IMG/VR virus record: IMGVR_UViG_3300046005_001691
Location: 1-36,258 of that record
DNA: 36,258 bases
Strand: one strand, 5' to 3'
Source: a virus
Shown here: piece after piece, positions 1-36,258 of the stretch
Layout of the letters: each line of letters starts with the position of its first letter
How positions within the stretch are numbered: the first letter of the stretch is position 1
The notes under the pieces: generated by a model
Told to the model about the DNA's origin: nothing
What the model saw: the letters and a program-made list of their open reading frames with translations, nothing else
Database searches by the model: none
Made by a program: the position numbers and the translations under genes

Positions 1-126
1 GGGCCTCTTGCAGCGCGCCAGCCGGAACGCCAGCGAAGCCTTGACGCTGCGGAGCCTCTGGCCCGTCGTACTCAATGAAGGCGTGCGTCGCGCTATTGGC
101 CGTCTCCCATTTGCCGCGCTCTGTCT
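1..126. repeat. Terminal direct repeat, left copy (circular assembly overlap)
   Basis: The first 126 bases are identical to 36130-36255. The last three bases of the window (36256-36258, ttt) do not match the corresponding caa at 127-129. The portal reading frame continues across the join without a break (1168 + 36129 - 35342 + 1 = 1956, divisible by 3). This means a circular or circularly permuted genome of about 36,129 bp. A repeat this short is more likely an assembler k-mer overlap than a biological terminal repeat. Confidence 0.9.
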
Positions 127-1168
127 CAAACGCACCGACACGCCCGATAAACGGCGCCTTGGGGGCAAGGGCTACCAGCTCCGTCGCCATCGTGCGCCAG
201 TAGTTATACATCCGCTGCGCGTCTTTGGCGTCGCGGATGAGGGAGCGGAAATGCCGCTTGCCCTCGACGTTCACCTCGTCACCGTACACCGGGACGATGG
301 GGATATACTTGCCCGGCCACTCGACCGTAGACAGAACCTCCGCCCCGGTCATGGTGTATTGCGTGACCTTGTAGCCCTCGATCTCACGGGGCGAGCCGAC
401 CACCGTAATTCCCTCAGCCTCGAACGTCGCCTGGTGCGTCGCGTAGACCTTGGCGTCGATAACCTCGCCGTTGGAGAGGAGGAGGATCTGCTTCTTTACC
501 TTGTCGCGCTTCCACCATTCAGCGATCAGCACGCTATCGTCAGAGATCCACGGATCGCGCAGGCTGGAATAGGGCTCGTCGTTCCAGTTGACCGCCTCGG
601 CGCCCTTGTACTCGCGTTCGAACACCGACTTCTTGATGACGTCGATGATAAAGGCGCTGTTCCAGTCGCTGCTATCAGCCGCCGTGGAAAAGGGGTCGCC
701 ATAGACCGCCAGCGGGTTAGCGATCCGCTCGACGCACAGGTCCTGATCGAACGTGTCGCCGGTCGCGTACTTGGTGTTGATCCTAAAGAACCCGTACCCA
801 CCCGTTACCGCGCACTCCATCGCCGTGTCATAGGCAACGTCGGCGTCAGACGTGTACTCAATGTTGCGGATTAGGTCGGAGTAGATGTCCGCGACAGCCG
901 GATCGGCGTCGCTATCCGCCGGGTGAACCTTAATGCTTGGCTTGTTCTGCCTGGCATCGTTGACCACCTGCCGAATGAACGCGGGCAGCTTGTTGACGGT
1001 CAAGACCGGGCGCTGTTCAAGCTCGCGCTGCTGCTTAACGCGCTCGTCCCATTGCTCGCCCAGACGGGCAAACTTGACGTCATCCAGCCACAGTTCGCGG
1101 TTGTCGTTTTCGGCGTCGCGCGCCTGTTCAAACGCCTCGCGGGCCTGGTCTAGGATATCGTCAGACAC
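1..1168 (-). CDS. Portal protein, N-terminal part (P22 gp1-like), cut by contig end
   Basis: This is the first 389 codons of a 651-residue portal protein whose remainder lies at 35342-36258. Portal forms the dodecameric ring at the capsid vertex through which DNA is packaged and ejected. The start is a GTG at 1168-1166 that shares one base with the terminase stop (TAGTG), so translation is probably coupled. My translation begins VSDDILDQAREAFEQA and contains LTVNKLPAFIRQVVNDARQ, NKPSIKVHP and DAQRMYNYWRT, the kind of segments seen in P22-type portals. Length and position next to terminase and scaffold support this. The alternative, a different portal family, is unlikely given the P22-type coat gene nearby. 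Confidence 0.9.
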   Translation of the reverse strand, partial: MSDDILDQAREAFEQARDAENDNRELWLDDVKFARLGEQWDERVKQQRELEQRPVLTVNKLPAFIRQVVNDARQNKPSIKVHPADSDADPAVADIYSDLIRNIEYTSDADVAYDTAMECAVTGGYGFFRINTKYATGDTFDQDLCVERIANPLAVYGDPFSTAADSSDWNSAFIIDVIKKSVFEREYKGAEAVNWNDEPYSSLRDPWISDDSVLIAEWWKRDKVKKQILLLSNGEVIDAKVYATHQATFEAEGITVVGSPREIEGYKVTQYTMTGAEVLSTVEWPGKYIPIVPVYGDEVNVEGKRHFRSLIRDAKDAQRMYNYWRTMATELVALAPKAPFIGRVGAFETERGKWETANSATHAFIEYDGPEAPQRQGFAGVPAGALQEA

Positions 1169-2454
1169 TAGCCCATCCATCCGTAAGAGCCGACCTGCGA
1201 TTGAGGGCGAGGCCGCTTGATCATCGGTTCTTCATAAGCGACGCAGCCAAGCCCAAAGGCGTCGGCGCCGTGCGACGACCAATCGTGCTTTGGCCCCAAG
1301 CCAACGCCGGTCTTTTCGTGTTTCTGTTCGTGATAGGCTCCGAGCGCGTCCAGCCCGCCTTGGCAGGTGTCAGCGTTGAACCACATCGATGGGAACAAGC
1401 GCCGCCCGGCCTCAATGCGAGCGGAAGCAGCGCCCTTGCCCTGGTTCGGGACCACTGTGACCGTGTAGCCCGCTGAACGCAGCGCGCTCTCATAAGAGAC
1501 GTCGAAAACCTTGTCGTTGCTCGCCCCGTCGTGAGGCAGCCAGATTTGCGCGCGGTCGGGCGTATAGCCCTGCGCTCGCATCCAGTTGACGTGAGTGGCG
1601 AGCGGTTGGCCTTGCGCCTCGTAATAGTCGAGCCACCTGATCTCGCGACCAATGAACTGCGCCGCCCAAATGGTGAGGCTGTCCGCTCTCGCGCCCGTTC
1701 CGCCGATGTCGAAGAACAGCCGGATCGTCATAAGGGGGTCTGCGGCGACCTTGCCAATCCGGCCCTCTTTCTTGGCCTTGGTCAAATCGGCAGCGTAATA
1801 CGCGCCCTCAGTCACCTTCTTGTATCCGCCGTCCCACACGTGCTCGTAATTGTCGGGCCGGTCGCGCTCATCGTCCCGGCGTTCTTGCTCTAGCTCAGCG
1901 GGAAACCACGGGTTATCCGACCAGTTGGCTTGAACGATCACGGCGCCGGTCGGCGGTGTCGGCCCACGCAGCAGCGCGTCAACCGGATCGGCCTTGCGGT
2001 TCGGGTTCCACGAGAACCACAGCTCAGACCCACTTTTGCGGATCGTCGGACGGAGAAGCGTTAGGCTGGCCTGGCTGAGAGACTGGGCCTCTTCGACCCA
2101 CGCTATGTCGAAGCCTTCAAGCGACTTGATGCTTTCGGCGGTGTGGTCCTGCATCCCCTGAAAGACGATGACGCCGCCGTATGGCGCCTCAATGTGCGTG
2201 TTCAAGATCGTGAACCGATCCGACAGGCCCATTTTGGCAATCTTGCTCTCGACCAGCTTCTTGACCGATTGCGCCAGCGATTTTTGGATTTCGCGGATGC
2301 AAACAACGTCGGTCTTTTGCCTAGCGCAGCGCGCCACAAGCAATTCGGCAAAAAAGTGCGACTTGCCAGAGCCCCGCCCGCCGTGGGCGCCCTTGTAACG
2401 CGCCGGGGGCAGCAGCGGAGCAAAGACCCTTGGGCACTCAAGCTTTAGGGTCAA
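1168..2454 (-). CDS. Terminase large subunit (packaging ATPase/nuclease)
   Basis: A 428-residue packaging motor that drives DNA into the prohead and cuts it headful by headful. The N-terminal ATPase domain has a Walker A motif GGRGSGKS at residues 25-32 and a Walker B FDIAWVEEA near 115-123. The C-terminal RNase H-like nuclease half includes RLFFDIGGTGARADS, where the first acidic residue would bind metal. The best available start is TTG at 2454, directly after an in-frame TAG and 17 bp inside the end of the small subunit gene. A TTG start is unusual but there is no better one upstream. The stop overlaps the portal start by one base. It resembles the PBSX-like/Terminase_3 group used by many P22-like podoviruses. 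Confidence 0.93.
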   Translation of the reverse strand: MTLKLECPRVFAPLLPPARYKGAHGGRGSGKSHFFAELLVARCARQKTDVVCIREIQKSLAQSVKKLVESKIAKMGLSDRFTILNTHIEAPYGGVIVFQGMQDHTAESIKSLEGFDIAWVEEAQSLSQASLTLLRPTIRKSGSELWFSWNPNRKADPVDALLRGPTPPTGAVIVQANWSDNPWFPAELEQERRDDERDRPDNYEHVWDGGYKKVTEGAYYAADLTKAKKEGRIGKVAADPLMTIRLFFDIGGTGARADSLTIWAAQFIGREIRWLDYYEAQGQPLATHVNWMRAQGYTPDRAQIWLPHDGASNDKVFDVSYESALRSAGYTVTVVPNQGKGAASARIEAGRRLFPSMWFNADTCQGGLDALGAYHEQKHEKTGVGLGPKHDWSSHGADAFGLGCVAYEEPMIKRPRPQSQVGSYGWMG

Positions 2455-7811: not shown

Positions 7812-8033
7812 CTAGGCGGCGTCCCTTGCTCGCGCAGGACGCTCAGCGGCAGCGTTTGCGAGTTCGTCCAGTGTGGCGAGGCCGGTATCGCAAAACGCCT
7901 TCCAGTGTTCCGCTGGAATGCTGTTCCGCTGGCGCCAGGAGGTGACAGTATGGACCGAAACGACATTCCCGATCTTGTCGAGGATCGCCGCTGCGGTGCC
8001 CGCTCGCTTGATGATGTCAGCATGTGTTGTCAT
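7812..8033 (-). CDS. Cro-like helix-turn-helix regulator
   Basis: A 73-residue protein transcribed away from the CI-type repressor. The HTH covers about residues 5-45 (ADIIKRAGTAAAILDKIGN, VSVHTVTSWRQRNSIPAEHW). The N-terminal A-G-x-x-x-x-x-x-L and W-R-Q-R-N-S-I-P segment fit the small YdaS/carph-isopro-type regulators found in Caulobacterales and other alphaproteobacteria. It probably binds the TATGC-N5-GCATA operators and represses its own promoter and the repressor gene. Its ATG lies only eight bases beyond the -10 box, so its mRNA has at most a few leader bases. Confidence 0.82.
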   Translation of the reverse strand: MTTHADIIKRAGTAAAILDKIGNVVSVHTVTSWRQRNSIPAEHWKAFCDTGLATLDELANAAAERPARARDAA

Positions 8034-8041
8034 GGCTAAGC

Positions 8042-8070
8042 ACTATGCATCGCGCATAGCGTTAACGCAA
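8042..8070 (-). promoter_or_regulatory. Leftward early promoter (PR equivalent)
   Basis: On the minus strand: -35 TTGCGT (8065-8070), a 17-base spacer, -10 CATAGT (8042-8047). It uses the same -10 and spacer length as the promoter at 8991-9019. A perfect operator overlaps the spacer and -10. Transcription would start about 8034-8036, essentially at the Cro-like ATG (8033), giving a leaderless or nearly leaderless message. Confidence 0.7.
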
Positions 8071-8109
8071 GGCGAAACGCATAATGAGTTGTTATATGCG
8101 TGCGAAATG
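8044..8109. promoter_or_regulatory. Operator array OR: TATGC-N5-GCATA sites spaced 25-26 bp
   Basis: One perfect palindromic site lies at 8044-8058. A partial site with an intact right half is at 8069-8083, and another with an intact left half is at 8095-8109, overlapping the repressor start. Centres are 25 and 26 bp apart. A CATAAT (8080-8085), matching five of six bases of a -10 for rightward transcription of the repressor, overlaps the second site, with no good -35. That is as expected for a promoter needing activation by bound repressor. Confidence 0.6.
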
Positions 8110-8910
8110 TTCAGTTCCGCCGCCCGCCTGAAAGCCGCCCGCATAGCCGCGCGATTTGAAACAGCGCCAGCGGCGGCGGACGCTATGGGCATTCCCCAGC
8201 AGACCTACATGGCCCACGAGAATGGCAGTCGTGGGTTCACAAAGTCAGCTGAACGCTACGCCAAGATGTTTAAGGTAACGCCCGAGTGGCTGCTATTCGG
8301 CACCGGAACGGGGGCGAAAATGACCCCTCCTCCGACAAAATCGCCAGACGACGGAAGGCCGATTCCCGCTGCGGAAATGCGGCTTTGGGTCAAAAGTGGA
8401 CCGGTAAGCCGCGAAAAACGCCCACAAGCCGCCTTGCGCAGCGTACCCATAATGGGTGAAGTTGCCGCCGGAGTTTGGCGGGAGACCGGCGTGAGTGCGA
8501 CGATTGACGCTAGCGAAAGCCTTTCGGTTGACGTGCCGGGCTATGAAAGAGCGGCGCTCTGGGCGCTTCGCGTCGCCGGGCCGTCGATGGACCTCCTTTA
8601 TCCCCCTGGACGATATGTCATCGTCGCCTCGCCTGCGGAGGCCGGGCTTCGTGTCGGCGATCACGTCGTGTGCGAACGCCAGCAAAACGGGCTTATCGAG
8701 ATCACGCTTAAAGAGCTGATGACGATTGACGGCAAGAACGCGCTAATGCCGCGCAGTTCGCACCCGGATTATCAGGAGCCGTTCATCCTCTCTGCTGCTG
8801 GCGACTATGACCAGACGGCCCCAAAGATTATCGGCGTTGTTGTCGCGGACTACGCCCGACGCGAGCGCCCGCCGATTCTGTTTTCGCCGGTCACGGACGA
8901 CGACGCCTAG
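8107..8910 (+). CDS. CI-type prophage repressor with S24 (LexA-like) peptidase domain
   Basis: A 267-residue repressor that maintains lysogeny and is inactivated by RecA-stimulated self-cleavage. Start chosen at 8107 (MFSSAARLKAARI) because the HTH begins there; a longer reading from 7873 would run through the operators and the Cro gene. Residues 5-65 are an HTH (ADAMGIPQQTYMAHENGSRG). The linker is about 70-110. The cleavage site is Ala121-Gly122 in GEVAAGVW. The catalytic serine is Ser160 (AGPSMD) and the lysine is Lys202 (EITLKEL), in the spacing expected of LexA/CI peptidases. There is no Shine-Dalgarno sequence upstream. The protein presumably binds the operators on both sides of its gene. 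Confidence 0.93.
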   Translation: MFSSAARLKAARIAARFETAPAAADAMGIPQQTYMAHENGSRGFTKSAERYAKMFKVTPEWLLFGTGTGAKMTPPPTKSPDDGRPIPAAEMRLWVKSGPVSREKRPQAALRSVPIMGEVAAGVWRETGVSATIDASESLSVDVPGYERAALWALRVAGPSMDLLYPPGRYVIVASPAEAGLRVGDHVVCERQQNGLIEITLKELMTIDGKNALMPRSSHPDYQEPFILSAAGDYDQTAPKIIGVVVADYARRERPPILFSPVTDDDA

Positions 8911-8977
8911 CGGCCATGCCGCCCTCACCCCAATAACTTCCGCTTTCGCATAGCCGCGAAAACAAGTCGCGCGCTGC

Positions 8978-9019
8978 TATGCGTTTTGCGTTGACACCGT
9001 GTTATGCGTTGCGCATAGT
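8978..9019 (+). promoter_or_regulatory. Rightward early promoter (PL equivalent) with two operators
   Basis: Consensus -35 TTGACA (8991-8996), a 17-base spacer and -10 CATAGT (9014-9019). A perfect operator TATGC-N5-GCATA spans 9003-9017. A second site with a perfect left half spans 8978-8992 and overlaps the -35. Centres are 25 bp apart. Bound repressor would cover both promoter boxes. Transcription would start near 9026 and reach the first gene (9044), which has GGGAG as ribosome site. Confidence 0.8.
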
Positions 9020-9043
9020 GTTTCCACAAACGGGAGACACCCC

Positions 9044-9325
9044 ATGCAGACCGCGACCATCAGTTTTGAAGTCGAAGTGATCGTCGAAGCCCTCGACCGT
9101 CACGCGGAAGCCGAGATCACCGAGATCGGCCTGATCGTCTATGACCGCGCCGCCCCGATTGGCCTGCGTCACAAGACGACGCGCATGGTTCCGGTTTCGC
9201 CGGAGCTGTCGGCGCTGATCCTTCAGCACTTCCTGTCGGAAGCCGAGGACGCCCTCGCCGAAGCCGACACCGACCACGCCGAACAGGCAGCGGAACACCG
9301 CTGGGAAATGGCGAGCGGTCGATGA
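9044..9325 (+). CDS. Hypothetical protein, first gene of rightward early operon (93 aa)
   Basis: A 93-residue acidic protein starting at 9044 (MQTATISFEVEVIVE), with GGGAG six to ten bases upstream and about 18 bases after the predicted transcription start. The N-terminal half alternates hydrophobic residues as beta strands; the C-terminal half is an acidic helix (EAEDALAEADTDHAEQAAEH). First-position genes in such operons are often antitermination or anti-host-defence factors. A DNA-mimic role could be suspected from the acidic tail, but nothing identifies it. Confidence 0.7.
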   Translation: MQTATISFEVEVIVEALDRHAEAEITEIGLIVYDRAAPIGLRHKTTRMVPVSPELSALILQHFLSEAEDALAEADTDHAEQAAEHRWEMASGR

Positions 9326-9423
9326 GCATTCGCACCCGCGCCCTCCTCATCCTCGCGCTGGCCTGTGTGTCATGGGCCGCGCTGGTCGGGCTGTACGTCA
9401 CGAGCATGGGGGCCGCGCAATGA
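9322..9423 (+). CDS. Tiny membrane protein (33 aa)
   Basis: A 33-residue reading frame with ATGA overlaps at both ends (9322-9325 and 9420-9423). After a basic start (MSIRTR) almost the whole length is one hydrophobic segment (LLILALACVSWAALVGLYV). The strict overlap linkage and clean membrane segment support a real small gene. Function unknown; small early membrane proteins in temperate phages include superinfection-exclusion factors. Confidence 0.55.
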   Translation: MSIRTRALLILALACVSWAALVGLYVTSMGAAQ

Positions 9424-9506
9424 CCCGCCCCAGCCGCTCCGCCGCCAACTACCTCACCGTCGTGCTGCTCGTTTGGGCGGCGCTCATCTGGATGATCGTC
9501 TCGTGA
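9420..9506 (+). CDS. Tiny membrane protein (28 aa)
   Basis: A 28-residue frame starting at 9420, overlapping the previous stop by 4 bp and the next gene's GTG by 4 bp. It has a short polar start with two arginines (MTRPSRSAANY) followed by one membrane segment (LTVVLLVWAALIWMIV). It resembles its 33-residue neighbour in design (positive inside, single helix, Trp-Ala-Ala-Leu shared), so the pair may act together. Function unknown. Confidence 0.5.
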   Translation: MTRPSRSAANYLTVVLLVWAALIWMIVS

Positions 9507-10153
9507 CGAAACTTACACCTGATGAAATAGCCGACAAACTGGCGCGCTATAGTCGCCTAAACCCGGCGACCGGCTGCCTGGAATGGCAGCGCGGCGGTCA
9601 CAACGGCTACGGACAGGTCTGCGTAGGCGGCGGGGAAGTTAGGCCCGCTCATCGCGCCGCCTATGAGATTGTTCACGGCCCCGTTGATCGGGCGCTACAC
9701 ATTGATCACCTCTGCCGAAACCCGAGCTGCATAAACGTCCAGCACCTAGAGGCGGTGACGCCGCGCGAGAATACTCTTCGGGGAATTGGACCGGCAGCGC
9801 GGAACGCTCGCAAGACGCACTGCAAAAATGGGCACGAACTTGCTCCGCCTAACCTGATCGCTCATCCGACGGCGCGCCTCTGCAAGACCTGCATCATGGG
9901 TCGCAAGGCGGAAAAGCGACGTCAGGAAGGGGCGCGGCAAGTTCGGGCGCGGCTGTCCGACGAGATCGCTCTCGAAATCCTACACGCATATGATCCCGTT
10001 GCGCGTAGTCGAAACCGCCCTACCGCCAACAGCACTAAAGACTTGGCGCGGCGATACGGCTTAACGCCCTCTGTCGTGCAGGCCCTCGTCTCTGGCAAGC
10101 GATACAAGCACTTGCCGCGACCTTCCTCTCTGGTTTGTGAGGCCAGCCAATGA
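9503..10153 (+). CDS. HNH homing-type endonuclease with C-terminal HTH (216 aa)
   Basis: Start is GTG at 9503, overlapping the previous stop (GTGA). The N-terminal domain is an HNH_3-type nuclease: GCLEWQRGGHNGYGQV, AHRAAYEIVHGPVDRA, HIDHLCRNPSCINVQHLEAV, with the catalytic His in HIDH and Asn in NVQHL. A zinc-ribbon-like CKNGHEL...CKTC follows at about 110-135. The C-terminus carries an HTH (DLARRYGLTPSVVQALVSGKRY). The combination is typical of free-standing phage homing endonucleases, which cut alleles lacking them; recruitment for phage DNA processing is the alternative. It is related in plan to 11280-11783. Confidence 0.85.
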   Translation: MTKLTPDEIADKLARYSRLNPATGCLEWQRGGHNGYGQVCVGGGEVRPAHRAAYEIVHGPVDRALHIDHLCRNPSCINVQHLEAVTPRENTLRGIGPAARNARKTHCKNGHELAPPNLIAHPTARLCKTCIMGRKAEKRRQEGARQVRARLSDEIALEILHAYDPVARSRNRPTANSTKDLARRYGLTPSVVQALVSGKRYKHLPRPSSLVCEASQ

Positions 10154-10452
10154 CCATCCTCGATTGGTCGCCCATCAACAGAACCCCGCGCGCTTCCCAG
10201 CAAGAACGCGCGAGCAGGGAGGACGCGGCACGCCCCCCCGTCGTGTCCTCCCGACCCCTCACCGGCTCACTGGCCGACTATGACGACCTCGCCGAAGCCG
10301 TGGACCGCTACCGCTCGACGTGGGGCCGCCCGGCATACGAGGCCATGAGAGACGCTGCGACCCGATGCGGGATGCCGCAGGGCGAGCCGCCGCTGTCGTG
10401 GTCCGTCCGCCGGGTCAACACCTACCGCAACATGATGGAGAGCGCGTCGTGA
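10150..10452 (+). CDS. Hypothetical protein (100 aa)
   Basis: A 100-residue protein linked by 4-bp overlaps at both ends. The N-terminal third is Arg/Pro/Ser-rich and probably disordered. The rest is helical (DDLAEAVDRYRSTWGRPAYE, MRDAATRCGMP, WSVRRVNTYRNMM). No catalytic motif seen. The C-terminal pattern could be a small DNA- or protein-binding domain. Function unknown. Confidence 0.6.
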   Translation: MTILDWSPINRTPRASQQERASREDAARPPVVSSRPLTGSLADYDDLAEAVDRYRSTWGRPAYEAMRDAATRCGMPQGEPPLSWSVRRVNTYRNMMESAS

Positions 10453-10628
10453 ACCCGTCCAGCTACCCCGACCAGATCGGAGGCCCTGACGCCTGCCTAG
10501 TCGCGGCGACTTGCCCCGATTGCAGCGAGCCGATCCCCACCGGGCGCCCCTTCGAAGTCATGGCCGCCGAGGACCACGACGGATCGCCCTGTCCTGACTG
10601 TCAATTTATGAATGGAGCGCCGGTATGA
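10449..10628 (+). CDS. Small zinc-ribbon protein (59 aa)
   Basis: Start is GTG at 10449 (VNPSSYPDQIGG), overlapping the previous stop by 4 bp; an upstream ATG reading at 10320 lies wholly inside the previous gene. Two CxxC pairs (ATCPDCSEP and SPCPDCQF, about 31 residues apart) form a four-cysteine zinc ribbon, likely a nucleic-acid or protein-binding knuckle. Small proteins like this are common in phage early regions. It overlaps the next ATG by 4 bp. Confidence 0.6.
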   Translation: MNPSSYPDQIGGPDACLVAATCPDCSEPIPTGRPFEVMAAEDHDGSPCPDCQFMNGAPV

Positions 10629-11077
10629 AAGCCGAAGACCTGACCATCGCCGAAGCCCGAGCGGCTTTCCGGTCCCTCAGTGCGGAAATCAATCCGCGCG
10701 CTGACGTCTTCGTCAGCGTTAACGGCGGAACGACCGGCTCCGATCTTCGCGCCACCGTCTACCCCGAAGGCATGACCCGTTCGGCCAGCTTCCCGATTTT
10801 TGGCGACACATGGCGCGAGCTTCTGGATGCCGCCCGGTCTGAGTGGGCGAAAAGGTCCGCGACCTACAACGCCGCGACCATTCGAGCGATGGCGCTGAAG
10901 ATCATCGAAGTCACCGCCGACATTGGCGAGTGCACCGACCGCGCCTTGCGAGCCGACTTCGGCCTGGGCGACGTTGAGCGGTTTGCCGAGGCTGCTGCGG
11001 AGCAGGCCAACGCGCTCGCTGCTGGTGGCCCCTTCTCGGTCACGATCACCAGTGGTGCGAACGCGAGGGCGGTATGA
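10625..11077 (+). CDS. Hypothetical protein (150 aa)
   Basis: A 150-residue protein in the early operon with 4-bp overlaps on both sides. The N-terminal half shows beta strands (ADVFVSVNGGTTGSDLRATVYP), then a helix (DTWRELLDAARSEWAKRS). The second half is helical (AATIRAMALKIIEVTADIG, VERFAEAAAEQANAL). I do not recognise the family. The overall plan is like small phage proteins that modulate host factors, but no function is claimed. Confidence 0.65.
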   Translation: MKAEDLTIAEARAAFRSLSAEINPRADVFVSVNGGTTGSDLRATVYPEGMTRSASFPIFGDTWRELLDAARSEWAKRSATYNAATIRAMALKIIEVTADIGECTDRALRADFGLGDVERFAEAAAEQANALAAGGPFSVTITSGANARAV

Positions 11078-11283
11078 GCGAGCCCGCCCCCTGCTACCGC
11101 ATCGTCATCCCGAACACCGGCCACGTCATTGAGGCTGTTGAGGTGTTCGCCAGGGCGAAACAGCGCGCCGAGTGGCATCGCAACCGCCTCGATCATCCGA
11201 CGTACCCGGCTCAAGTCATTGTCCAGCGTGTCGGGCCTGATGGCCGGGCGCGGAAGGTCTGGCCGCAAGGGGCGAGCGCGTGA
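11074..11283 (+). CDS. Hypothetical protein (69 aa)
   Basis: A 69-residue basic protein (MSEPAPCYRIVIPNTGHVIEA...), start at 11074 overlapping the previous stop by 4 bp. It looks like a small alpha-beta domain: strand (CYRIVIPN), strand (HVIEAVEVF), helix (RAKQRAEWHRNRL), strand (AQVIVQRV). Its end overlaps the GTG of the next gene (GTGA). No function assigned. Confidence 0.6.
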   Translation: MSEPAPCYRIVIPNTGHVIEAVEVFARAKQRAEWHRNRLDHPTYPAQVIVQRVGPDGRARKVWPQGASA

Positions 11284-11783
11284 GTGCGAAGCCGACATTT
11301 ATAGATCGGGTTGAGTTTGACCTGAATTGCGGCTGTTGGCTTTGGGCTTACGGCGGGCGCACAAGTGACGGTTACGGCAAGTTCCAGCACGAGAAGAAAA
11401 CCCTTCTCGCTCACCGCGTGTCGTGGATGCTGCACCGGGGCGAAATCCCGAACGGGCATAGCGTCTGCCACCGCTGCGACACCCCGGCTTGCGTAAACCC
11501 GGCCCACCTGTTCACCGCCAGCCACGCGGACAACATGGCGGACATGAGGGCTAAGGGCCGGGCCGACCGTAAGCACGGCGCCCGGAATGGCCGCGCCAAA
11601 TTGTCGAACGATCAAGCGATGGAAATGCTGACCCTTTCAAAAATGGGTCTGTTTTCTAAGCGCCAAATTGCCCGGTCCTACGGCGTAGCGGACTCGACCG
11701 TTGCCCGCGTGATCAACGGCGAAACCTTCTCACACCTCATTCATTCCCGCGCTCTTATCGAGGCATCCCATGCGAACGTCTGA
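11280..11783 (+). CDS. Second HNH homing-type endonuclease with C-terminal HTH (167 aa)
   Basis: Start is GTG at 11280. It has the same plan as 9503-10153: CGCWLWAYGGRTSDGYGKF, AHRVSWMLHRGEIPNG, then VCHRCDTPACVNPAHLFTA with the HNH_3 core, DNMADMRAKGR, and a C-terminal HTH (RQIARSYGVADSTVARVINGE). The zinc-ribbon insertion of the other copy is missing. The two are likely distant paralogues. It overlaps the ERF gene by 14 bp. Homing or recombination nuclease are the two options. Confidence 0.85.
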   Translation: MSAKPTFIDRVEFDLNCGCWLWAYGGRTSDGYGKFQHEKKTLLAHRVSWMLHRGEIPNGHSVCHRCDTPACVNPAHLFTASHADNMADMRAKGRADRKHGARNGRAKLSNDQAMEMLTLSKMGLFSKRQIARSYGVADSTVARVINGETFSHLIHSRALIEASHANV

Positions 11784-12423
11784 ATCCATAAAGGCCCTGG
11801 CGCCTGCCCTGACCGCTGCCCTTGGCAAGCTGGAGGGCGCGGCGAAGACCGCCAAGAACCCGCACTTTAAGAACACCTACGCCGACCTTGCGTCAGTCGT
11901 GGATGCCAGCCGGTCAATCCTCGCAGAGAGCGACCTCGCCGTGATGCAGTCGCCGGGCTTGATCGTGGAAGGCCGCCTGCAACTGTTCACCCGCATCATC
12001 CACAAGTCGGGCGAATGGATCGAGGGCGAATTTCACATGCCCCTCGCCAAGTCAGATCCGCAGGCCACGCTTGCCACGCTGACCTATGCCCGGCGCGGCG
12101 CCTTGATGGCTATTCTCGGCATCCCGGCAGTTGATGATGACGGCGAAACGGCAGTGGGCAGGGGAACGGATACCGCAGCCAGCGGGCCGCGTCAGGCCCC
12201 GCCCGTGACCGCCAAGCCCGCCCCGCAGCCGACGTTGGCCGAGCGCGCCAACCGCCTCGCCGCGACGCTGGAAGCCGCCAAGACGCAAGACGACCTCCGC
12301 CGCACCTTTGACCGCGCGGCGGGCCTGTGTGCCGATCTGGACGCCGCCGACCCCGAGCGCCTGGTTGAATTGACCGCGCTTTATGAGCGGCTGTTCCTCG
12401 CGCTTGAACAGGTGGCGGCATGA
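11770..12423 (+). CDS. erf: ERF-family single-strand annealing protein
   Basis: A 217-residue recombinase of the ERF family, which anneals complementary single strands during phage recombination and circularisation. The N-terminal 115 residues carry the family pattern: LAPALTAALGKLEGAAKTAKNPHFKNTYADL split over residues 8-38, then VVDASRSILAESDLAVMQSP, LFTRIIHKSGEWIEGEF, and YARRGALMAILGIPAVDDDGE, in which G-I-x-x-x-x-D-D-D-G is diagnostic. A Pro/Ala linker separates a helical C-terminal tail that may recruit SSB. It sits with Gp157- and NinB-like genes, which supports a recombination module. Confidence 0.92.
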   Translation: MRTSESIKALAPALTAALGKLEGAAKTAKNPHFKNTYADLASVVDASRSILAESDLAVMQSPGLIVEGRLQLFTRIIHKSGEWIEGEFHMPLAKSDPQATLATLTYARRGALMAILGIPAVDDDGETAVGRGTDTAASGPRQAPPVTAKPAPQPTLAERANRLAATLEAAKTQDDLRRTFDRAAGLCADLDAADPERLVELTALYERLFLALEQVAA

Positions 12424-12935
12424 GCGCGGCGCCGTACCTCGACCGCCACACCATCACCGCCAAGGGCCTAGCCGACGCCTTGCGCGAGGGCGGGTTTGCC
12501 GACGACGAGGATCTGATCCTCGACACGCTGGAAGGCGAGACCGACGCGATGGAGGCAGTTAGCCGCCTCCTCCGCTGGATGAACGAACGGCAGGCCACGG
12601 CCCAGAGCCTCAAGGCGCTAGAAGCCGACTACGCCGCCCGGCGTAAGCGGTTCGAGGAGGCGGTTAAATCCGCTCGCGGCGCCCTTGCCCGGTTCATGGA
12701 CGAAACCGGCCTGACGAAGATCGAACGGCCCGAGGCGACGCTATCCATGCGGCAGGGCTCGCCGTCCGTCATCTACCCGGCGGACCTGGACCCCGAAACC
12801 CTGCCCGAGAAGTTCCGCCGCTGGACCTGCGAAGCCGATAAGGCCGCGATTAAAGACGCCATGCTGGCCGGTGAAGACGTGCCGGGCCTGACGCTTTCCA
12901 ACGGCGGAACCTCGCTTGCGGTGCGCGTGAAGTAA
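12420..12935 (+). CDS. Gp157-family (Siphovirus Gp157-like) protein
   Basis: A 171-residue protein starting at 12420 (ATGA overlap). The middle is a long coiled coil (AQSLKALEADYAARRKRFEE, then AVKSARGALARFMDETGLTK), followed by a beta-rich end (IERPEATLSMRQGSP, LPEKFRRWTCEADKAAIKDAM, GLTLSNGGTSLAVR). This is the plan of the Gp157 family, linked in Streptococcus thermophilus phage to resistance and often found beside single-strand annealing proteins. A helper role in recombination is likely; the mechanism is not known to me. Confidence 0.82.
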   Translation: MSAAPYLDRHTITAKGLADALREGGFADDEDLILDTLEGETDAMEAVSRLLRWMNERQATAQSLKALEADYAARRKRFEEAVKSARGALARFMDETGLTKIERPEATLSMRQGSPSVIYPADLDPETLPEKFRRWTCEADKAAIKDAMLAGEDVPGLTLSNGGTSLAVRVK

Positions 12936-13336
12936 TGTCCCGCCCCCTCGTCATCCTAAACACCAAGGCCAACCGGCAGACCGCCGCCAACTGGTGCATG
13001 AACGCCCCGGAGGGAACGCAGGTCGAGTTTCGCGAGCGCCTTCGGACGGACGATCAAAATAAAAAAATGTGGGCAAGCCTTACTGACCTCGCCCGCCAGC
13101 GCCCGTTCCACAACGGCGTCAAGATGAGCCCCGACACCTACAAGGCGATGCTCATGCACGCTTTAGGCCATGAGACGCGGTTTATCCCGACCCTGGACGG
13201 CGACGGCGTGTTTCCGCTGGGGTTCCGCTCCTCGCGGCTGACCATCCCCGAGATGAGCGACCTCCTGGAACTCCTCCACGCCTTCGCCGCTCGTGAAGGC
13301 CTCACCCTATCCAAACAGACGGAGGCGGCAGCGTGA
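12935..13336 (+). CDS. NinB-like recombination protein
   Basis: A 133-residue protein whose start shares one base with the previous stop (TAATG). It shows the NinB pattern: VEFRERLRTDDQNKKMWASL near residues 30-50 (R-T-x-x-Q-N-x-x-M-W is characteristic), then LTDLARQRPFHNGVKMSPD, YKAMLMHALGHE, and RSSRLTIPEMSDLLELLHAF. In lambda NinB (Orf) binds single-stranded DNA and SSB and replaces RecFOR functions. Neighbouring ERF fits. Confidence 0.87.
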   Translation: MSRPLVILNTKANRQTAANWCMNAPEGTQVEFRERLRTDDQNKKMWASLTDLARQRPFHNGVKMSPDTYKAMLMHALGHETRFIPTLDGDGVFPLGFRSSRLTIPEMSDLLELLHAFAAREGLTLSKQTEAAA

Positions 13337-14211
13337 GCCTGACCTTTAATGAAGACCCGAGTTCATCCCGCGCTTTGTCACAAACCGATTTAGGAACCAC
13401 CATGACCATCGACGAACTCGAAGCCTACATTACTGCTCGCGGCTACTGCGTCCAGCGCGAGGGCGCCAGCCTCACCGCCGGGGGCGGCCTCGACCTCGGC
13501 AGCCTGACCACGCTGCCGGAGGGCGCCAGCCTCACCGCCGGGGGCTACCTCGACCTCGGCAGCCTGACCACGCTGCCGGAGGGCGCCGGCCTCACCGCCG
13601 GGGGCGACCTCTACCTCGGCAGCCTGACCACGCTGCCGGAGGGCGCCAGCCTCACCGCCGGGGGCTACCTCGGCCTCGGCCGCCTGACCACGCTGCCGGA
13701 GGGCGCCGGCCTCACCGCCGGGGGCTACCTCGGCCTCCGCAGCCTGACCAGCGAAACCCAACGCTACCAAGGCAAGACGATCCGCCTCCGCACCATCGAC
13801 GGCATTTGCACCCGGCTCATCAAACAGCGGACGGTCGGCGGCGTGACGGTCTGGAGCGCGCAATACTTCAGGGGCGACCTTACCAACGACCCCCGCTGCT
13901 ACGTCGCGCAAGACGGAGACGAGTACGCCCACGGCGAGACCGCTGAAAAGGCGATGCGGGACCTGCGGTTCAAGGTTGCTCAGCGCGATCTGGACCCGGC
14001 CGAACTGGTTGCGGACATCAAGCGCCGGGGGACGGTGACGTTCAACGACTACCGGCTGCTCACGGGCGCCTGCGAGTCTGGACTGTCGGAGGGCCTGCGG
14101 GCTCTCGGCAAGGAAGGCGCGGAGGAGATGCCGCTCGGCGAGGCGCTGGCGTTGTGCTCCGGCGCATACGGCGGCAGCACGTTCCGCAAGCTCATGGGGG
14201 TCGCGCAATGA
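13333..14211 (+). CDS. Solenoid repeat protein with five 20-residue repeats (292 aa)
   Basis: The start is GTG at 13333 (4-bp overlap with NinB) or possibly the ATG at 13402 (MTIDELEAYI); the former gives 292 residues. Residues about 43-140 are a tandem 20-residue repeat of the form GASLTAGG-x-L-D-L-GSLTTLPE. It resembles the 'LPEGL-TVGG-x-LDL' leucine-rich-like solenoid repeats of many phage proteins, predicted to form a beta-helix. A non-repeated C-terminal domain follows (TIRLRTIDGICTRLIKQRTVGG, then YRLLTGACESGLSEGLRALG), which looks like an enzymatic or binding module. The antisense strand has a long open frame as a by-product of the repeat. Function unknown. Confidence 0.75.
   Translation: MSLTFNEDPSSSRALSQTDLGTTMTIDELEAYITARGYCVQREGASLTAGGGLDLGSLTTLPEGASLTAGGYLDLGSLTTLPEGAGLTAGGDLYLGSLTTLPEGASLTAGGYLGLGRLTTLPEGAGLTAGGYLGLRSLTSETQRYQGKTIRLRTIDGICTRLIKQRTVGGVTVWSAQYFRGDLTNDPRCYVAQDGDEYAHGETAEKAMRDLRFKVAQRDLDPAELVADIKRRGTVTFNDYRLLTGACESGLSEGLRALGKEGAEEMPLGEALALCSGAYGGSTFRKLMGVAQ
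13459..13752 (+). repeat. 60-bp tandem coding repeats (about 4.9 copies)
   Basis: Units begin at 13459, 13519, 13579, 13639 and 13699 with near identity at DNA level (gagggcgcc... / ...acgctgccg). Differences cluster at a few codons: Gly/Tyr/Asp before Leu, Asp/Tyr/Gly after it, and Ser/Gly in GAS/GAG. Such identity implies recent expansion or gene conversion, so copy number probably varies between isolates. Confidence 0.92.
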
Positions 14212-14390
14212 CCAAGGAACTAAAGGAAGCGAGAGAGAGGTTGGAAGACGCCATCGACTGTTCTGGCGCCGCTCGCGAGGATGACGAGTTCGTCGTCGTC
14301 TACCGCGCCATGCTCCTCGCCATCTGCCGTCTTCTCGGCGCCCTTTCTCATACGGGAGGCGGGGATGTCTCATACGGGAGGCGGGGATGA
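14208..14390 (+). CDS. Hypothetical small protein (60 aa)
   Basis: A 60-residue protein starting at 14208 (MTKELKEARERLEDAI), with ATGA overlaps at both ends. It is helical throughout, with an acidic middle (AAREDDEFVVVYRAMLLAICRL). Its last codons are formed by a perfect 22-bp duplication (14346-14389), giving GGGDV and then a shifted reading. The natural C-terminus before the duplication was probably eight residues shorter or different. Function unknown. Confidence 0.6.
   Translation: MTKELKEARERLEDAIDCSGAAREDDEFVVVYRAMLLAICRLLGALSHTGGGDVSYGRRG
14346..14389 (+). repeat. Perfect 22-bp tandem duplication covering a ribosome site and start codon
   Basis: Two identical 22-base units at 14346-14367 and 14368-14389, each with GGGAGG five bases before an ATG. 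The second ATG starts the MazG-like gene (14387). The first (14365) opens a frame of only nine codons. A recent slippage event, since no differences have accumulated. Confidence 0.93.
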
Positions 14391-14680
14391 GTGACGCGCC
14401 GTCCCAAGCCCAAGAACACGACAGGCCAGCGACCGTTTCAACTGGCGAATACAGCATCGGTAGCAACGTACTTCCCGGCCTCTCGAAGCTGGTCGAGGAG
14501 TGCGGGGAAGTCGTGCAGGCGGTCGGTAAGATCATGGGCGCACATGGCTTCGTGACGCATTGGGACGGCTCCGATCTCAAGGAGCGCTTGGAGGATGAGA
14601 TGGCTGACCTCTGGGCCGCTCCAGCTACTCGGCTGGGTGAGCCATCTGGGCAACAAATCGTGGACCGACTGCACGGCTGA
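14387..14680 (+). CDS. MazG-like NTP pyrophosphohydrolase, frameshifted (97 aa as read)
   Basis: The first about 76 residues match MazG-like pyrophosphohydrolases, which hydrolyse NTPs or alarmones: LPGLSKLVEECGEVVQAVGK carries the E-E-x-x-E metal site, and LEDEMADLWAA the second E-x-x-D site. After DLWAA the frame becomes unlike the family (PATRLGEPSGQQIVD) and stops at 14680. In the +1 frame the family-like sequence continues (QLLGWVSHLGN, then ERLARLVEVVAKKRGW, NIYGL) to a TAG at 14742-14744, overlapping the next ATG by 11 bases. One extra base near 14620 (GCCGCTCCAG against GCCGCCCAG) would account for this. It is either a real inactivation, a sequencing error, or an unusual frameshift; no slippery heptamer is visible. 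Confidence 0.7.
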   Translation: MSDAPSQAQEHDRPATVSTGEYSIGSNVLPGLSKLVEECGEVVQAVGKIMGAHGFVTHWDGSDLKERLEDEMADLWAAPATRLGEPSGQQIVDRLHG

Positions 14681-14733
14681 AAGGTTGGCCCGGCTGGTCG
14701 AGGTCGTCGCGAAGAAGCGAGGCTGGAACATTT

Positions 14734-14922
14734 ATGGCCTTTAGCCCGTCAGAAACGGCCCGCTTTACAGCCGCTGTCCATCGTCGTGAGGCGGAGGTTC
14801 GCCGGGCGTCTGAATACGCTCACCAGCGGGAGTTTGCCGAGGTTCTGGACCAATGGGCCAACGACGCCGAACACCGCGCCACAGAGGCCGAGAGAGGCCA
14901 GCAGGGGGAGTTGTTCGCATGA
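14734..14922 (+). CDS. Hypothetical helical protein (62 aa)
   Basis: A 62-residue protein (MAFSPSETARFTAAVHRREA...) consisting of one long charged helix or coiled coil, ending EAERGQQGELFA. A GELF-type end resembles clamp- or polymerase-associated tails but is too short to be evidence. It starts within the last codons of the repaired MazG frame and overlaps the next gene by 4 bp, with GGGGGAG at its end serving that gene as ribosome site. Function unknown. Confidence 0.6.
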   Translation: MAFSPSETARFTAAVHRREAEVRRASEYAHQREFAEVLDQWANDAEHRATEAERGQQGELFA

Positions 14923-15179
14923 GGATGAGCCCTCGCCTGCTCGATCTGGCGTCCGCCGCTGCCTACCTGTCGCTCCCGCTTGCTGCGGTGCGTCGGCTGG
15001 CCGCTGGCCGCGTCCTGATCGACGGGCGAGCGCGTTGGGATCGGGTCGCGCTAGACGCATGGCTTGACGAACAGCGGGGCGTTCGCGTTCAGTCACCGGC
15101 CAACGAAAACCCCAGCCCTGCGGATGCCGCCCTTGCCCGCTTCCTTGCGACCGCGCGACATGCTCCCCGGCGTTCATAG
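14919..15179 (+). CDS. Excisionase-like/HTH_17 DNA-binding protein
   Basis: An 86-residue protein starting at 14919 (MRMSPRLLDL) or 14925, with GGGGGAG upstream. Residues 5-50 are a MerR/Xis-type winged helix: LLDLASAAAYLSLPLAAVRRL, then RVLIDGRARWDRVALDAWLDE, in which the final W-x-R-x-x-L-D-A-W-L is typical of the HTH_17/AlpA-Xis group that helps integrase bend the attachment site. It lies directly before and overlapping the integrase, the classic place of xis. An AlpA-like activator of int is the alternative. Confidence 0.75.
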   Translation: MRMSPRLLDLASAAAYLSLPLAAVRRLAAGRVLIDGRARWDRVALDAWLDEQRGVRVQSPANENPSPADAALARFLATARHAPRRS

Positions 15180-16233
15180 GGTTCGCGCCAAGGCGGGCGG
15201 CGGCAAGCTGGCCGAGTATTGGTACGCATGGCGGGGCGGGCCGCGCATCCTCAAAGCCGTGGCCGCTGGGGAGACCGCCCTAGCCCGCGAGATCGCCCGC
15301 CAGCTATCCGCCGCGACCGCAGCCTATCAGGAGGCCATGCGCCCCGCTCGCGCTGACGCGTTCCTGTCTGGCCTGATTACCCAATACCTGACCGGCGAGG
15401 ACGGCAAGCCGCCGCCCCATCTGGCCAAGCTCGCCACCCGGACGCAGCGGGATATCCGCCTTGCGCTAGACGTCGTTCGCGTCGACCTGGGCGAAATGGA
15501 GTTGGACGCGCTCAAAGCCAAAGGCGCCCGCCGCGCGCTTCTGGACTGGCGAGACCGCTACGCATCGACGCCGCGCACCGCTGACGCCCGCATGGAAGCC
15601 CTAGCCCGCGTCCTGTCATGGGCGGTCGAATGCGATCTGATCGAAGCGAACCCGCTGGAAAAGTGGCCCCGCCTCTACAGCGTCAACCGGGCGGATGCGA
15701 TCTGGACGAAGGCGGATTTGGTCAAGCTGTTGAAGGGAGCCCCGGCGCCGTTCCGCACCGCGATCCTGTTCGCAATCCTGACCGGCCTTCGCGGGGGCGA
15801 TCTGGTCAAGATCACATGGCATCAGGTCGGGAGCGACGGCATCCGGCTCCGCACGTCGAAAAGCGGGGGGAAGCGATCCGCCGTCATTCCCCTGACCCGG
15901 AAGCTGCGCGCTCTGCTAAACAAGATTGGACGCCGCGACGTCGGAACCGTCCTTGTCAGCGCCACCGGCAAGCCTTGGACGCTGGGCGGGCTAAAGACGG
16001 CAATTCAGCGAGAGAAGACCGCCAAGGGCATCACCGGCCTGCGGTTCCACGACCTACGCGGGACAGCGGCGACGAACTTTATACGCGAGGGGTTGCCGGT
16101 CGCGGACGTGGCGATGATCCTTGGATGGGATCAACAGCGCACCGCCGCGCTGGCAAGCTATGTAACCGCCGACGCTGTTGCAGCGGGCATGCTGAAACGG
16201 CTAGAGAGGAACAGATCGGGGACGGGTTTGTAA
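15160..16233 (+). CDS. int: Tyrosine recombinase integrase
   Basis: A 357-residue integrase reading to 16233 that recombines attP with a bacterial attB and, with the excisionase, reverses it. I chose the ATG at 15160 (MLPGVHRVRAK) since related integrases start near this point; an ATG at 15124 would add 12 residues. The arm-binding and core-binding domains cover about 1-165 (AEYWYAWRGGPRIL at the start). The catalytic domain shows TGLRGGDLVKI (first Arg), TSKSGGKR (Lys), RFHDLRGTAATNF (His-x-x-Arg), ILGWDQQRT (Trp in place of the second His), and Tyr in LASYVTADAV. The gene ends inside the first arm-type repeat of attP. Confidence 0.93.
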   Translation: MLPGVHRVRAKAGGGKLAEYWYAWRGGPRILKAVAAGETALAREIARQLSAATAAYQEAMRPARADAFLSGLITQYLTGEDGKPPPHLAKLATRTQRDIRLALDVVRVDLGEMELDALKAKGARRALLDWRDRYASTPRTADARMEALARVLSWAVECDLIEANPLEKWPRLYSVNRADAIWTKADLVKLLKGAPAPFRTAILFAILTGLRGGDLVKITWHQVGSDGIRLRTSKSGGKRSAVIPLTRKLRALLNKIGRRDVGTVLVSATGKPWTLGGLKTAIQREKTAKGITGLRFHDLRGTAATNFIREGLPVADVAMILGWDQQRTAALASYVTADAVAAGMLKRLERNRSGTGL

Positions 16234-16449
16234 AAGATCGGACGGGGCCTGTAAAAATGCCCGGTCAACGATCTAGCAGCGAGCGCGGAAAACCCTTACA
16301 GCGCAAGCGATAGCCGGCTTAGCTCAGATGGTAGAGCAGCGGTTTTGTAATCGGGCAAACAGCGCCGAAAAATCAATGCACCGGGTGTAAAAGATCGGGC
16401 CATCTGCCGTCGATCCGTAAAGGGTTGCGGGGGTCTGTGTAAAAGGCCG
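16229..16449 (+). other. attP: four TGTAAAA arm-type repeats around a tRNA-derived core
   Basis: Direct repeats TGTAAAAgatcgg at 16229-16241, TGTAAAAatgc at 16250-16260, TGTAAAAgatcggg at 16386-16399 and TGTAAAAggccg at 16438-16449. Two lie on each side of the tRNA-like core (16313-16351), the arrangement of integrase arm-binding sites. The first overlaps the integrase stop codon. Otherwise the 231-base gap 16234-16464 holds no gene. A weak stem before four Ts near 16440-16460 might end spanin transcription. Confidence 0.7.
16313..16351 (+). other. attP core: 5' half of tRNA-Thr(UGU) gene
   Basis: The segment reads as tRNA from its first base: acceptor GCCGGCT, TA, D arm GCTC-AGATGGTA-GAGC, A, anticodon stem GCGGT and loop TTTGTAA with anticodon TGT. 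It then departs from tRNA at 16352, with no variable loop, T arm or 3' acceptor. It is therefore not a functional tRNA. It marks the host attachment site as a tRNA-Thr(UGU) gene with crossover near the anticodon loop. Confidence 0.82.
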
Positions 16450-16464
16450 CAGCCCTTAAGGCCG

Positions 16465-16749
16465 TCACTTCCACAGCTTCCACCAGGGCCGGGCCGTCAC
16501 CGTATCTCGGTGAGCGTCCACGATAGCCACGGCTGCGGCTCTACGCCCATCGCACACGGTCAGCGCGGCCTCTTGGCGTAGTGCCAGCGCCCCAAGGTCG
16601 CCAACGGTCTCCAGCGGCCCGACGTCGGCCCTAGGGCAGGCTTCCCGCAGGATCGGCGGGACGTTGATCGTTAGGGGCTTGGGGCTCCCCGCGCATGACG
16701 CCAAGAGACCCGCGCAGAGCATCACGAAAAGCGGGATCGAGGCGCGCAT
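16465..16749 (-). CDS. Outer-membrane spanin subunit (Rz1-like lipoprotein)
   Basis: A 94-residue lipoprotein starting at 16749 (MRASIPLFVML), with GGGGG upstream. The signal peptide ends in a lipobox LLASC, cysteine at about residue 19. Pro-rich residues follow (GSPKPLTINVPP), as in Rz1. It starts inside the inner-membrane spanin gene in another frame (16631-16749), the nested Rz/Rz1 arrangement. It is exported, lipidated, and fuses outer to inner membrane with its partner in the last step of lysis. The C-terminal helix (AALTVCDGRRAAAVAIVD) is longer than in lambda Rz1. Confidence 0.87.
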   Translation of the reverse strand: MRASIPLFVMLCAGLLASCAGSPKPLTINVPPILREACPRADVGPLETVGDLGALALRQEAALTVCDGRRAAAVAIVDAHRDTVTARPWWKLWK

Positions 16750-35341: not shown

Positions 35342-36258
35342 TTAGATCAGGGGCTGCGCTGTGGCTTGGCCCAATGCGGTCATCCGCATTTCTTGTTCGA
35401 CCCTTGCGCGGTCGGTCTCAGCCTCAAAACGCTTGGTCTGGGCTTCGAATTGTTTCACCTGAAGTTCCGCCGCCTTCAGCGACTGGTCCGACTTCATGGC
35501 CTCGTTTTCCGCCTGGAGCTGGCCGATCATGGCCTGACCTTGCTGAATCTGCTGTTGCAGTTCCGGCGGGATGCCTTGCTGTTGGCCTTGCGGGTTCAGC
35601 GCGGCGAGGCGCTTGGCGACTTCCTCGTGTTCCGGCCAGTCCATTGACTTGGCGATCAGGTCGCCCAGCAGCGGAGCGGCTTGCGGGAACGCCTGTATCA
35701 GCGCCGTCATCTGTTCGGCGGCTTCCTCGCGGCGTGACGTGTAGGACGGTCCAGCAGCGACGATCAGGTCATACTTGCCAGCGTCCAGCGCGTACACCGC
35801 CGGGATAGGCCGCCCCTCGCCGTCAACAACCGGCTGGCCCTTTTCGTCAAGGGCCTGCGTTTCTTGATTGATCGGCACATTGCGGGGCGAGCCGTCAACG
35901 CCCATGACGCGGATGATACGCTCTGTCGAGTACACGTGCGGGATCAGGTCAATCAGGATGCGCCCGGCGTGGCGAATGGCCCGCGACAGGTTGTCCACGA
36001 AGTGGAACGTGGACACGTCCCCTTCCCGCTGGCGAGCCATGATCGCCCGCCCGCTGGTCTCGTTAGACCGGGCGCCGAGCGAGGCGTCATAGATGCCAAG
36101 GATCGCCTTCATCTCGTCAGACGTAGACAGGGCCTCTTGCAGCGCGCCAGCCGGAACGCCAGCGAAGCCTTGACGCTGCGGAGCCTCTGGCCCGTCGTAC
36201 TCAATGAAGGCGTGCGTCGCGCTATTGGCCGTCTCCCATTTGCCGCGCTCTGTCTTTT
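35342..36258 (-). CDS. Portal protein, C-terminal part (P22 gp1-like)
   Basis: The rest of the portal gene begun at 1-1168; after removing the 126-base overlap the whole protein is 651 residues. This part includes MKAILGIYDASLGARSNETS, GRAIMARQREGDVSTFHFVD, NLSRAIRHAGRILIDLIPHV and YDLIVAAGPSYTSRREEA, strongly typical of P22-type portals (E-T-S-G-x-A-I-x-x-R-Q is a hallmark). The C-terminus is a long coiled coil (QQIQQGQAMIGQLQAENEAM, KAAELQVKQFEAQTKRFEA), corresponding to the P22 portal barrel region. Its ATG at 36112 is internal, not the start. Confidence 0.92.
   Translation of the reverse strand, partial: KTERGKWETANSATHAFIEYDGPEAPQRQGFAGVPAGALQEALSTSDEMKAILGIYDASLGARSNETSGRAIMARQREGDVSTFHFVDNLSRAIRHAGRILIDLIPHVYSTERIIRVMGVDGSPRNVPINQETQALDEKGQPVVDGEGRPIPAVYALDAGKYDLIVAAGPSYTSRREEAAEQMTALIQAFPQAAPLLGDLIAKSMDWPEHEEVAKRLAALNPQGQQQGIPPELQQQIQQGQAMIGQLQAENEAMKSDQSLKAAELQVKQFEAQTKRFEAETDRARVEQEMRMTALGQATAQPLI
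36130..36255. repeat. Terminal direct repeat, right copy
   Basis: Identical to 1-126. The final three bases of the window (36256-36258) differ from the left end and are likely end-of-contig error, since they would change the portal sequence at that point (caa at 127-129). Confidence 0.9.

What the first reader, a model, noticed from the sequence alone, without database searches (positions are those of the whole stretch)
16313..16351. attP carries the 5' half of tRNA-Thr(UGU), so the prophage would supply the upstream DNA of an essential tRNA
Most tRNA-targeting integrases carry the 3' part of the tRNA gene, leaving the host promoter intact. Here the phage core matches the acceptor 5' strand, D arm and anticodon loop only, on the plus strand, with int upstream. 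Recombination would give: host promoter + 5' half + phage late-gene end at one junction, and int-side phage DNA + 5' half + host 3' half at the other. The intact tRNA-Thr(UGU) would then be transcribed from phage DNA. I see no strong sigma70 promoter between int and the core (16234-16312), only a weak TTGTAA-N18-TAAAAA. The tRNA may depend on read-through from int or on a cryptic promoter, tying host viability to prophage transcription.
Basis: partly seen in the sequence, partly recalled or inferred. Interest (0 to 1): 0.7.

Follow-up and report, generated by a model that had tools for sequence, protein, structure and literature searches.

The report
Phage attP holding half a tRNA
This phage inserts into a bacterial threonine-tRNA gene using a copy of the gene's front half, so after insertion the repaired tRNA gene sits behind phage DNA instead of its own control region: uncommon, but a known kind of arrangement that recurs among this integrase's relatives.

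Summary
Window 16313-16350 (38 nt, one base shorter than stated) is the 5' half of tRNA-Thr(UGU), positions 1-38, ending with the anticodon loop. It lies 79 bp after a tyrosine integrase gene, on the same strand, between TGTAAAA repeats that look like arm-type integrase sites. The contig ends abut, so this is a free circular phage genome and the site is an attP.

Provirus L040 has a 41-nt 5' half of tRNA-Lys(UUU) at its host-promoter end, and an intact tRNA-Lys(UUU) 19 bp after the int stop codon at the other. At least 17 integrase relatives carry 5' halves (Thr, Arg, Lys, Ser); others carry 3' halves on the opposite strand inside the same arm-site frame, so captured half and core strand have switched repeatedly.

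The promoter claim is weaker. Read-through from int is unlikely in a lysogen, because the operon ending in int starts under an operator-like palindrome. A local cryptic promoter is inferred.

5' capture is documented (159 of 3,919 Islander islands; archaeal pTN3): a new member of a known kind. No Thr lysogen or host genome was available.

The parts
15160..16233 (+). Tyrosine integrase gene (357 aa); start codon choice uncertain (ORF open from 15064)
   Evidence: Pfam Phage_integrase E 1.2e-17; catalytic-region residues conserved in the family alignment
16229..16235 (+). TGTAAAA repeat, putative arm-type integrase site 1 (overlaps int stop codon)
   Evidence: direct repeats; same strand and layout in relatives
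16234..16312 (+). 79-bp phage leader between int and core; would lie directly upstream of the reconstituted tRNA in a lysogen
   Evidence: no consensus promoter
16250..16256 (+). TGTAAAA repeat, putative arm-type site 2
16313..16350 (+). attP core: tRNA-Thr(UGU) 5' half, positions 1-38
16344..16350 (+). Anticodon loop TTTGTAA (positions 32-38), proposed 7-bp overlap where strands exchange
   Evidence: identity with the tRNA ends exactly here; exchange point inferred
16386..16392 (+). TGTAAAA repeat, putative arm-type site 3
16438..16444 (+). TGTAAAA repeat, putative arm-type site 4
8107..8910 (+). CI-like repressor gene (start inferred within ORF 7873-8910)
   Evidence: phrog_4 transcriptional repressor E 1e-19
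8044..8058 (+). Operator-like palindrome in front of the repressor gene (one mismatch)
8991..9019 (+). Only consensus-like promoter in 7700-16500 (TTGACA-17-CATAGT), reading into the + strand operon that ends with int
   Evidence: one hit, shuffles give mean 1.1
9003..9017 (+). Operator-like palindrome TATGCGTTGCGCATA overlapping that promoter
   Evidence: only exact match in the window

Best explanation
16313-16350 is the core of the attachment site (attP) of a temperate phage whose tyrosine integrase recombines within the anticodon loop of the host tRNA-Thr(UGU) gene. The phage carries the 5' half of that tRNA, so integration leaves host promoter + displaced 5' half at the late-gene end, and int + 79 bp of phage DNA + an intact tRNA-Thr(UGU) (phage 5' half, host 3' half) at the int end. 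Shown: the half tRNA, its place, the arm-like repeats, the free circular state of the genome, and the same junction topology in a relative's provirus at tRNA-Lys(UUU). Inferred: use of this site by this integrase, exchange in the loop, and that a lysogen transcribes the tRNA from a weak local promoter in the int 3' end or the 79-bp leader rather than from the repressible early operon. The 5' half is one of two states seen in this integrase family: relatives with the same arm-site frame carry a 3' half on the opposite strand. The proposed reason is that the anticodon stem-loop is a dyad that the enzyme can meet in either orientation.
For: Core and integrase; identical core in three other contigs with a sharp right boundary at the loop end; arm repeats in the same strand and spacing in 5'- and 3'-capturing relatives; contig ends join into one 698-aa portal gene without a stop, so both flanks are phage; provirus L040: 41-nt direct repeat of the tRNA-Lys(UUU) 5' half plus one flanking base, displaced half next to host DNA, intact tRNA 19 bp after int; 17 rows with 5' capture against 32 with 3' capture on the integrase tree, at least 3 changes of half, single clade rejected p-AU 2e-9; operator-like palindrome over the early promoter.
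Against: No integrated copy at tRNA-Thr(UGU) was found: 81 viral contigs hold an intact tRNA-Thr(UGU) of the searched type; in the 78 examined none has this integrase within the fetched DNA. The only genome scan found no close integrase. No promoter is detectable by consensus. A second host tRNA-Thr(UGU) cannot be excluded.
Confidence: 0.85

Rival explanations
1. Same attP, but the host has another tRNA-Thr(UGU) gene, or natural read-through, so the change of upstream DNA has no consequence for the host.
For: No host genome could be read, so the copy number is unknown. 5' capture occurs in several independent lineages, which suggests it is tolerated.
Against: tRNA-Thr(UGU) is usually single-copy in alphaproteobacteria (general knowledge, not tested). 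L040 shows 5' capture at another tRNA species usually in single copy, tRNA-Lys(UUU).
Confidence: 0.25
2. One reading: tRNA-Thr(UGU) in the lysogen depends on read-through from int, tying host viability to prophage transcription.
For: int ends only 79 bp upstream, and only 14-19 bp upstream in the Lys-type relatives. No terminator-like site on the + strand lies between int and the core. Archaeal pTN3 is reported to express the rebuilt tRNA from the integrase promoter (PMC8371274).
Against: int is the last gene of a long + strand block whose only consensus-like promoter is overlapped by an operator-like palindrome beside a CI-like repressor gene, so it should be off in a lysogen. Separate promoters nearer to int were not excluded.
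Confidence: 0.15
3. The half tRNA is a relic or chance fragment and integration happens elsewhere.
For: No integrated copy at tRNA-Thr was found.
Against: Core conserved without change where both flanks diverge (83.5% left, 72.5% right), correct distance from int, flanking arm repeats, and equivalent tRNA halves at the same place in dozens of relatives.
Confidence: 0.04

Closest known systems
tRNA-gene attP sites with anticodon-loop crossover and a 5' tDNA fragment (Islander database, PMC4383910)
   Same: Phage carries one tRNA half, integration rebuilds the gene, and the displaced fragment is the 5' part; 159 of 3,919 islands are of this type
   Different: Listed there only as a count; this phage and tRNA-Thr(UGU) case were found in a metagenomic virus, not in a sequenced host
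Thermococcus nautili plasmid pTN3 integrase (PMC5495485, PMC8371274)
   Same: attP/attB share the 5' half of a tRNA (41 bp); the rebuilt tRNA-Leu gene is separated from its original promoter
   Different: Archaeal suicidal integrase whose gene is split on integration; here int lies wholly beside the core
Paracoccus phage vB_PsuS_Psul1, EBPR podovirus 2, Rhizobium phage RHEph27, Mesorhizobium phage vB_MseS-P1
   Same: Related integrases (35-37% identity), core at the same place downstream of int, crossover at the anticodon loop
   Different: They carry 3' halves (tRNA-Trp, Gly) on the strand opposite to int, so the host promoter stays with the rebuilt tRNA
tRNA-dependent lysogeny of actinobacteriophages (PMC10865867)
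   Same: Lysogen viability depends on phage-provided tRNA function
   Different: There the phage encodes a complete tRNA and does not rebuild the host gene; here no complete tRNA is encoded and the gene is rebuilt
dusA 5'-end integrases (PMC4482086)
   Same: Island replaces the 5' end and upstream DNA of a target gene; putative promoters remain after insertion
   Different: Protein-coding target, different integrase family

Membership tests
Phage tyrosine integrase with tRNA-gene attP | Tyrosine recombinase catalytic domain | tested here: met
   Pfam Phage_integrase E 1.2e-17; R211, H297, R300, G322 and Y334 among invariant columns
Phage tyrosine integrase with tRNA-gene attP | tRNA fragment next to int, flanked by arm-type repeats | tested here: met
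Phage tyrosine integrase with tRNA-gene attP | Integration into the matching tRNA gene, with tRNA rebuilt at one junction | tested here: inconclusive
   Seen in relative L040 at tRNA-Lys(UUU); no tRNA-Thr lysogen found
5'-fragment (promoter-replacing) tDNA islands | attP identity runs from tRNA nucleotide 1 to the crossover | tested here: met
   positions 1-38, ending at the loop
5'-fragment (promoter-replacing) tDNA islands | Displaced 5' fragment with host promoter at the far end of the provirus | tested here: inconclusive
   met in relative L040; not testable for the window phage
5'-fragment (promoter-replacing) tDNA islands | Rebuilt tRNA transcribed from element DNA | not testable with these tools
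   needs RNA from a lysogen
tRNA-dependent lysogeny | Phage encodes a complete tRNA of the same isotype | tested here: not met
   no tRNA gene in the complete genome

The most novel reading that the evidence does not exclude
In this integrase family the captured tRNA half and the strand of the core have flipped repeatedly inside a fixed arm-site frame, and the 5'-capturing lineages carry hidden constitutive promoters in the int 3' end or leader that replace the promoter of an essential host tRNA in every lysogen.
Probability: 0.4. Interest if true: 0.55.

Novelty: new member of a known kind. Interest (0 to 1): 0.4.

Why it matters
If lysogens really transcribe an essential tRNA from phage DNA, prophage decay or deletion on the int side could harm the host, which would stabilise the prophage and keep a phage promoter under host selection. 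The family offers natural pairs for a direct test: relatives at the same tRNA-Lys(UUU) with opposite capture (L040 and L041).

Tried and rejected
Plasmid search with a tRNA-Thr(UGU) sequence: nothing. Two patterns for intact tRNA-Thr(UGU) were mis-spaced by one base, so their zero counts mean nothing; the corrected pattern found 81 contigs, of which the 78 that could be examined hold none of these integrases in the fetched DNA (L163 starts inside the tRNA and was not usable, L139 was looked at). Promoter scoring of leaders upstream of 5' halves: none stands out from shuffles, nor does the native host upstream of L040, so this test has no power. Conservation as promoter evidence: the left flank is more conserved than the right (83.5 against 72.5%), but arm sites alone may explain it. 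Considered and rejected: tRNA-dependent lysogeny (no complete tRNA in the genome) and a conventional 3' capture read on the wrong strand (no T-arm motif near the core).

Full report
What is there. The window is one IMG/VR virus record of 36,258 bp. Its two ends abut: the minus-strand portal gene continues across 1/36258 as one 698-aa frame without an internal stop, and both parts match the portal family phrog_156 in consecutive stretches. It is therefore a free circular or circularly permuted phage genome, and a tRNA fragment in its middle is an attP candidate rather than a provirus junction. Late genes (P22-type coat protein, portal, scaffold, endolysin) run on the minus strand and early genes on the plus strand; the two blocks converge at the site.

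The core. 16313-16350 equals tRNA-Thr(UGU) positions 1-38. Without gaps, position 32-38 (the anticodon loop TTTGTAA) is 16344-16350, so identity stops at the last loop base. The finding's end, 16351, is one base too far. ARAGORN sees no tRNA and Rfam nothing at its cut-off, as expected for a half. Three other IMG/VR contigs have the same 38 nt. Against L025 the last 300 nt before the int stop codon are 97.7% identical, the 79-nt leader 83.5%, and the 110 nt to the right 72.5%, while the core is identical. That is what a site under selection to match a host gene looks like.

The frame. Four TGTAAA copies on the plus strand flank the core (16229, 16250 | 16386, 16438). The same arrangement, a closely spaced pair on the int side and often a pair about 40-55 bp apart on the other, is found in relatives that carry 5' halves and in relatives that carry 3' halves. 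They are most simply arm-type integrase sites.

Relatives. Solved examples among sequenced phages carry 3' halves on the strand opposite to int: Psul1 (annotated attachment site in tRNA-Trp), EBPR podovirus 2 (tRNA-Trp), RHEph27 and Mesorhizobium phage P1 (tRNA-Gly). Among the nearest IMG/VR relatives I classified what follows int. 5' halves on the int strand: tRNA-Thr(UGU) in the window, L022, L023, L024 and L025; tRNA-Arg(CCU) in L026, L027 and L046; tRNA-Lys(CUU) in L044, L056, L065 and L118; tRNA-Lys(UUU) in L049, L116 and, integrated, L040. A further three (L030, L039, L043) carry a tRNA-Ser(GCU) 5' half on the other strand, pointing away from int. 3' halves, or intact tRNAs in the minus orientation, are carried by about 32. 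Anticodons of halves were read by eye from the sequence.

Tree. On a maximum-likelihood tree of 106 integrases the window lies in a 14-row clade (support 99/98) that holds 5' plus-strand, 5' minus-strand and 3' types. Two other 5' groups lie elsewhere. The captured half changes at least 3 times and the four-way geometry at least 5 times, and one clade for all 5' types is rejected (p-AU 2.4e-9; the group was defined from the data, so read this as strong rather than exact). Clustered at 70% identity there are 13 clusters with 5' and 22 with 3' capture. The sample was drawn by similarity to the window, so this is not an unbiased rate, but it is far above the 159 of 3,919 (4%) of the Islander database (PMC4383910). 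In Sinorhizobium meliloti 9 of 88 were 5' (PMC11476347).

An integrated example. The L040 provirus contig (45,762 bp) holds, in int orientation: host DNA, then GCGTCC...TTTTAATC (41 nt of the tRNA-Lys(UUU) 5' half) followed by phage DNA at the far end; and int, 19 bp, then the complete tRNA-Lys(UUU) followed by a host gene that looks like a ROK-type sugar kinase (read by eye). Upstream of the repeat the two junctions share only one base. L041, a relative at the same tRNA species, has the opposite geometry: intact tRNA on the other strand, and a 3' fragment at the far end.

How the tRNA is transcribed. No consensus promoter lies in 15900-16500, but none lies in the native host upstream DNA of L040 either, so the test cannot tell. 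In 7700-16500 the only consensus-like promoter is 8991-9019, the number that shuffles also give, but it lies in the expected place and is overlapped by the window's only exact TATGCGNNNCGCATA palindrome; a near copy (8044-8058) lies in front of a CI-like repressor gene. I infer that the operon ending in int is repressed in a lysogen, so read-through is a poor supply. A weak local promoter inside the int 3' end or the leader is the likeliest source; in L040, with 19 bp between int and tRNA, it would have to overlap int. This step is inference (about 0.5).

Mechanism proposed. The integrase exchanges strands within the anticodon loop. The anticodon stem is a dyad, so the core can be met in either orientation; the half that the phage keeps is usually the one between the loop and int, whichever strand that is. 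That gives 3' capture with the tRNA antisense to int, and 5' capture with the tRNA sense to int. The Ser type, with the half on the far side of int, shows the rule is not absolute. Literature agrees that loop and stem match the canonical core site of tyrosine recombinases and that expression from element DNA is seldom met in bacteria (PMC8371274).

A second integrase. Two contigs (L138, L140) carry a tRNA-Thr(UGU) 5' half beside a clearly different integrase that lies on the other side of the core. 5' capture at this tRNA has thus arisen at least twice.

Verdict. The finding is real and correctly reasoned in its topology, overstated in rarity and in the promoter argument, and belongs to a documented minority class. 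What is not shown: a lysogen at tRNA-Thr(UGU), the host, the copy number of the tRNA, and any transcript.

Noticed in passing
window 1..1180 and 35342..36258: Portal gene continues across the contig ends without stop or overlap: the record is a complete circular genome although classed as linear.
   Followed up: yes
L040 4089-4185; L112 and L113 (G005:C1:45000-45762, 1-1500): Provirus with 5' capture of tRNA-Lys(UUU): intact tRNA 19 bp after int, displaced 5' half beside host DNA.
   Followed up: yes
L030, L039, L043 (77-134 nt after int): tRNA-Ser(GCU) 5' half on the strand opposite to int, pointing away from it: a second geometry of 5' capture, in which the non-int end of the phage would lie upstream of the tRNA.
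   Followed up: partly
L138 1748-1785, L140 9295-9332: A different tyrosine integrase family carries the same tRNA-Thr(UGU) 5' half with int on the other side; in L138 the core extends into a palindrome GAGCAGCG...CGCTGCTC.
   Followed up: partly
L114 (far end of the L041 provirus): tRNA-Lys 3' fragment followed by further TTTTACAG arm-like repeats, as if a second element or tandem site lay beyond it.
   Followed up: no
window 8044-8058 and 9003-9017: Paired operator-like palindromes flanking a CI-like repressor gene; the second overlaps the only consensus-like early promoter.
   Followed up: partly
L031, L060, L087 and about 18 other integrase relatives: No tRNA half found after int in these relatives; their attachment sites may lie in other genes or elsewhere in the phage.
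   Followed up: no
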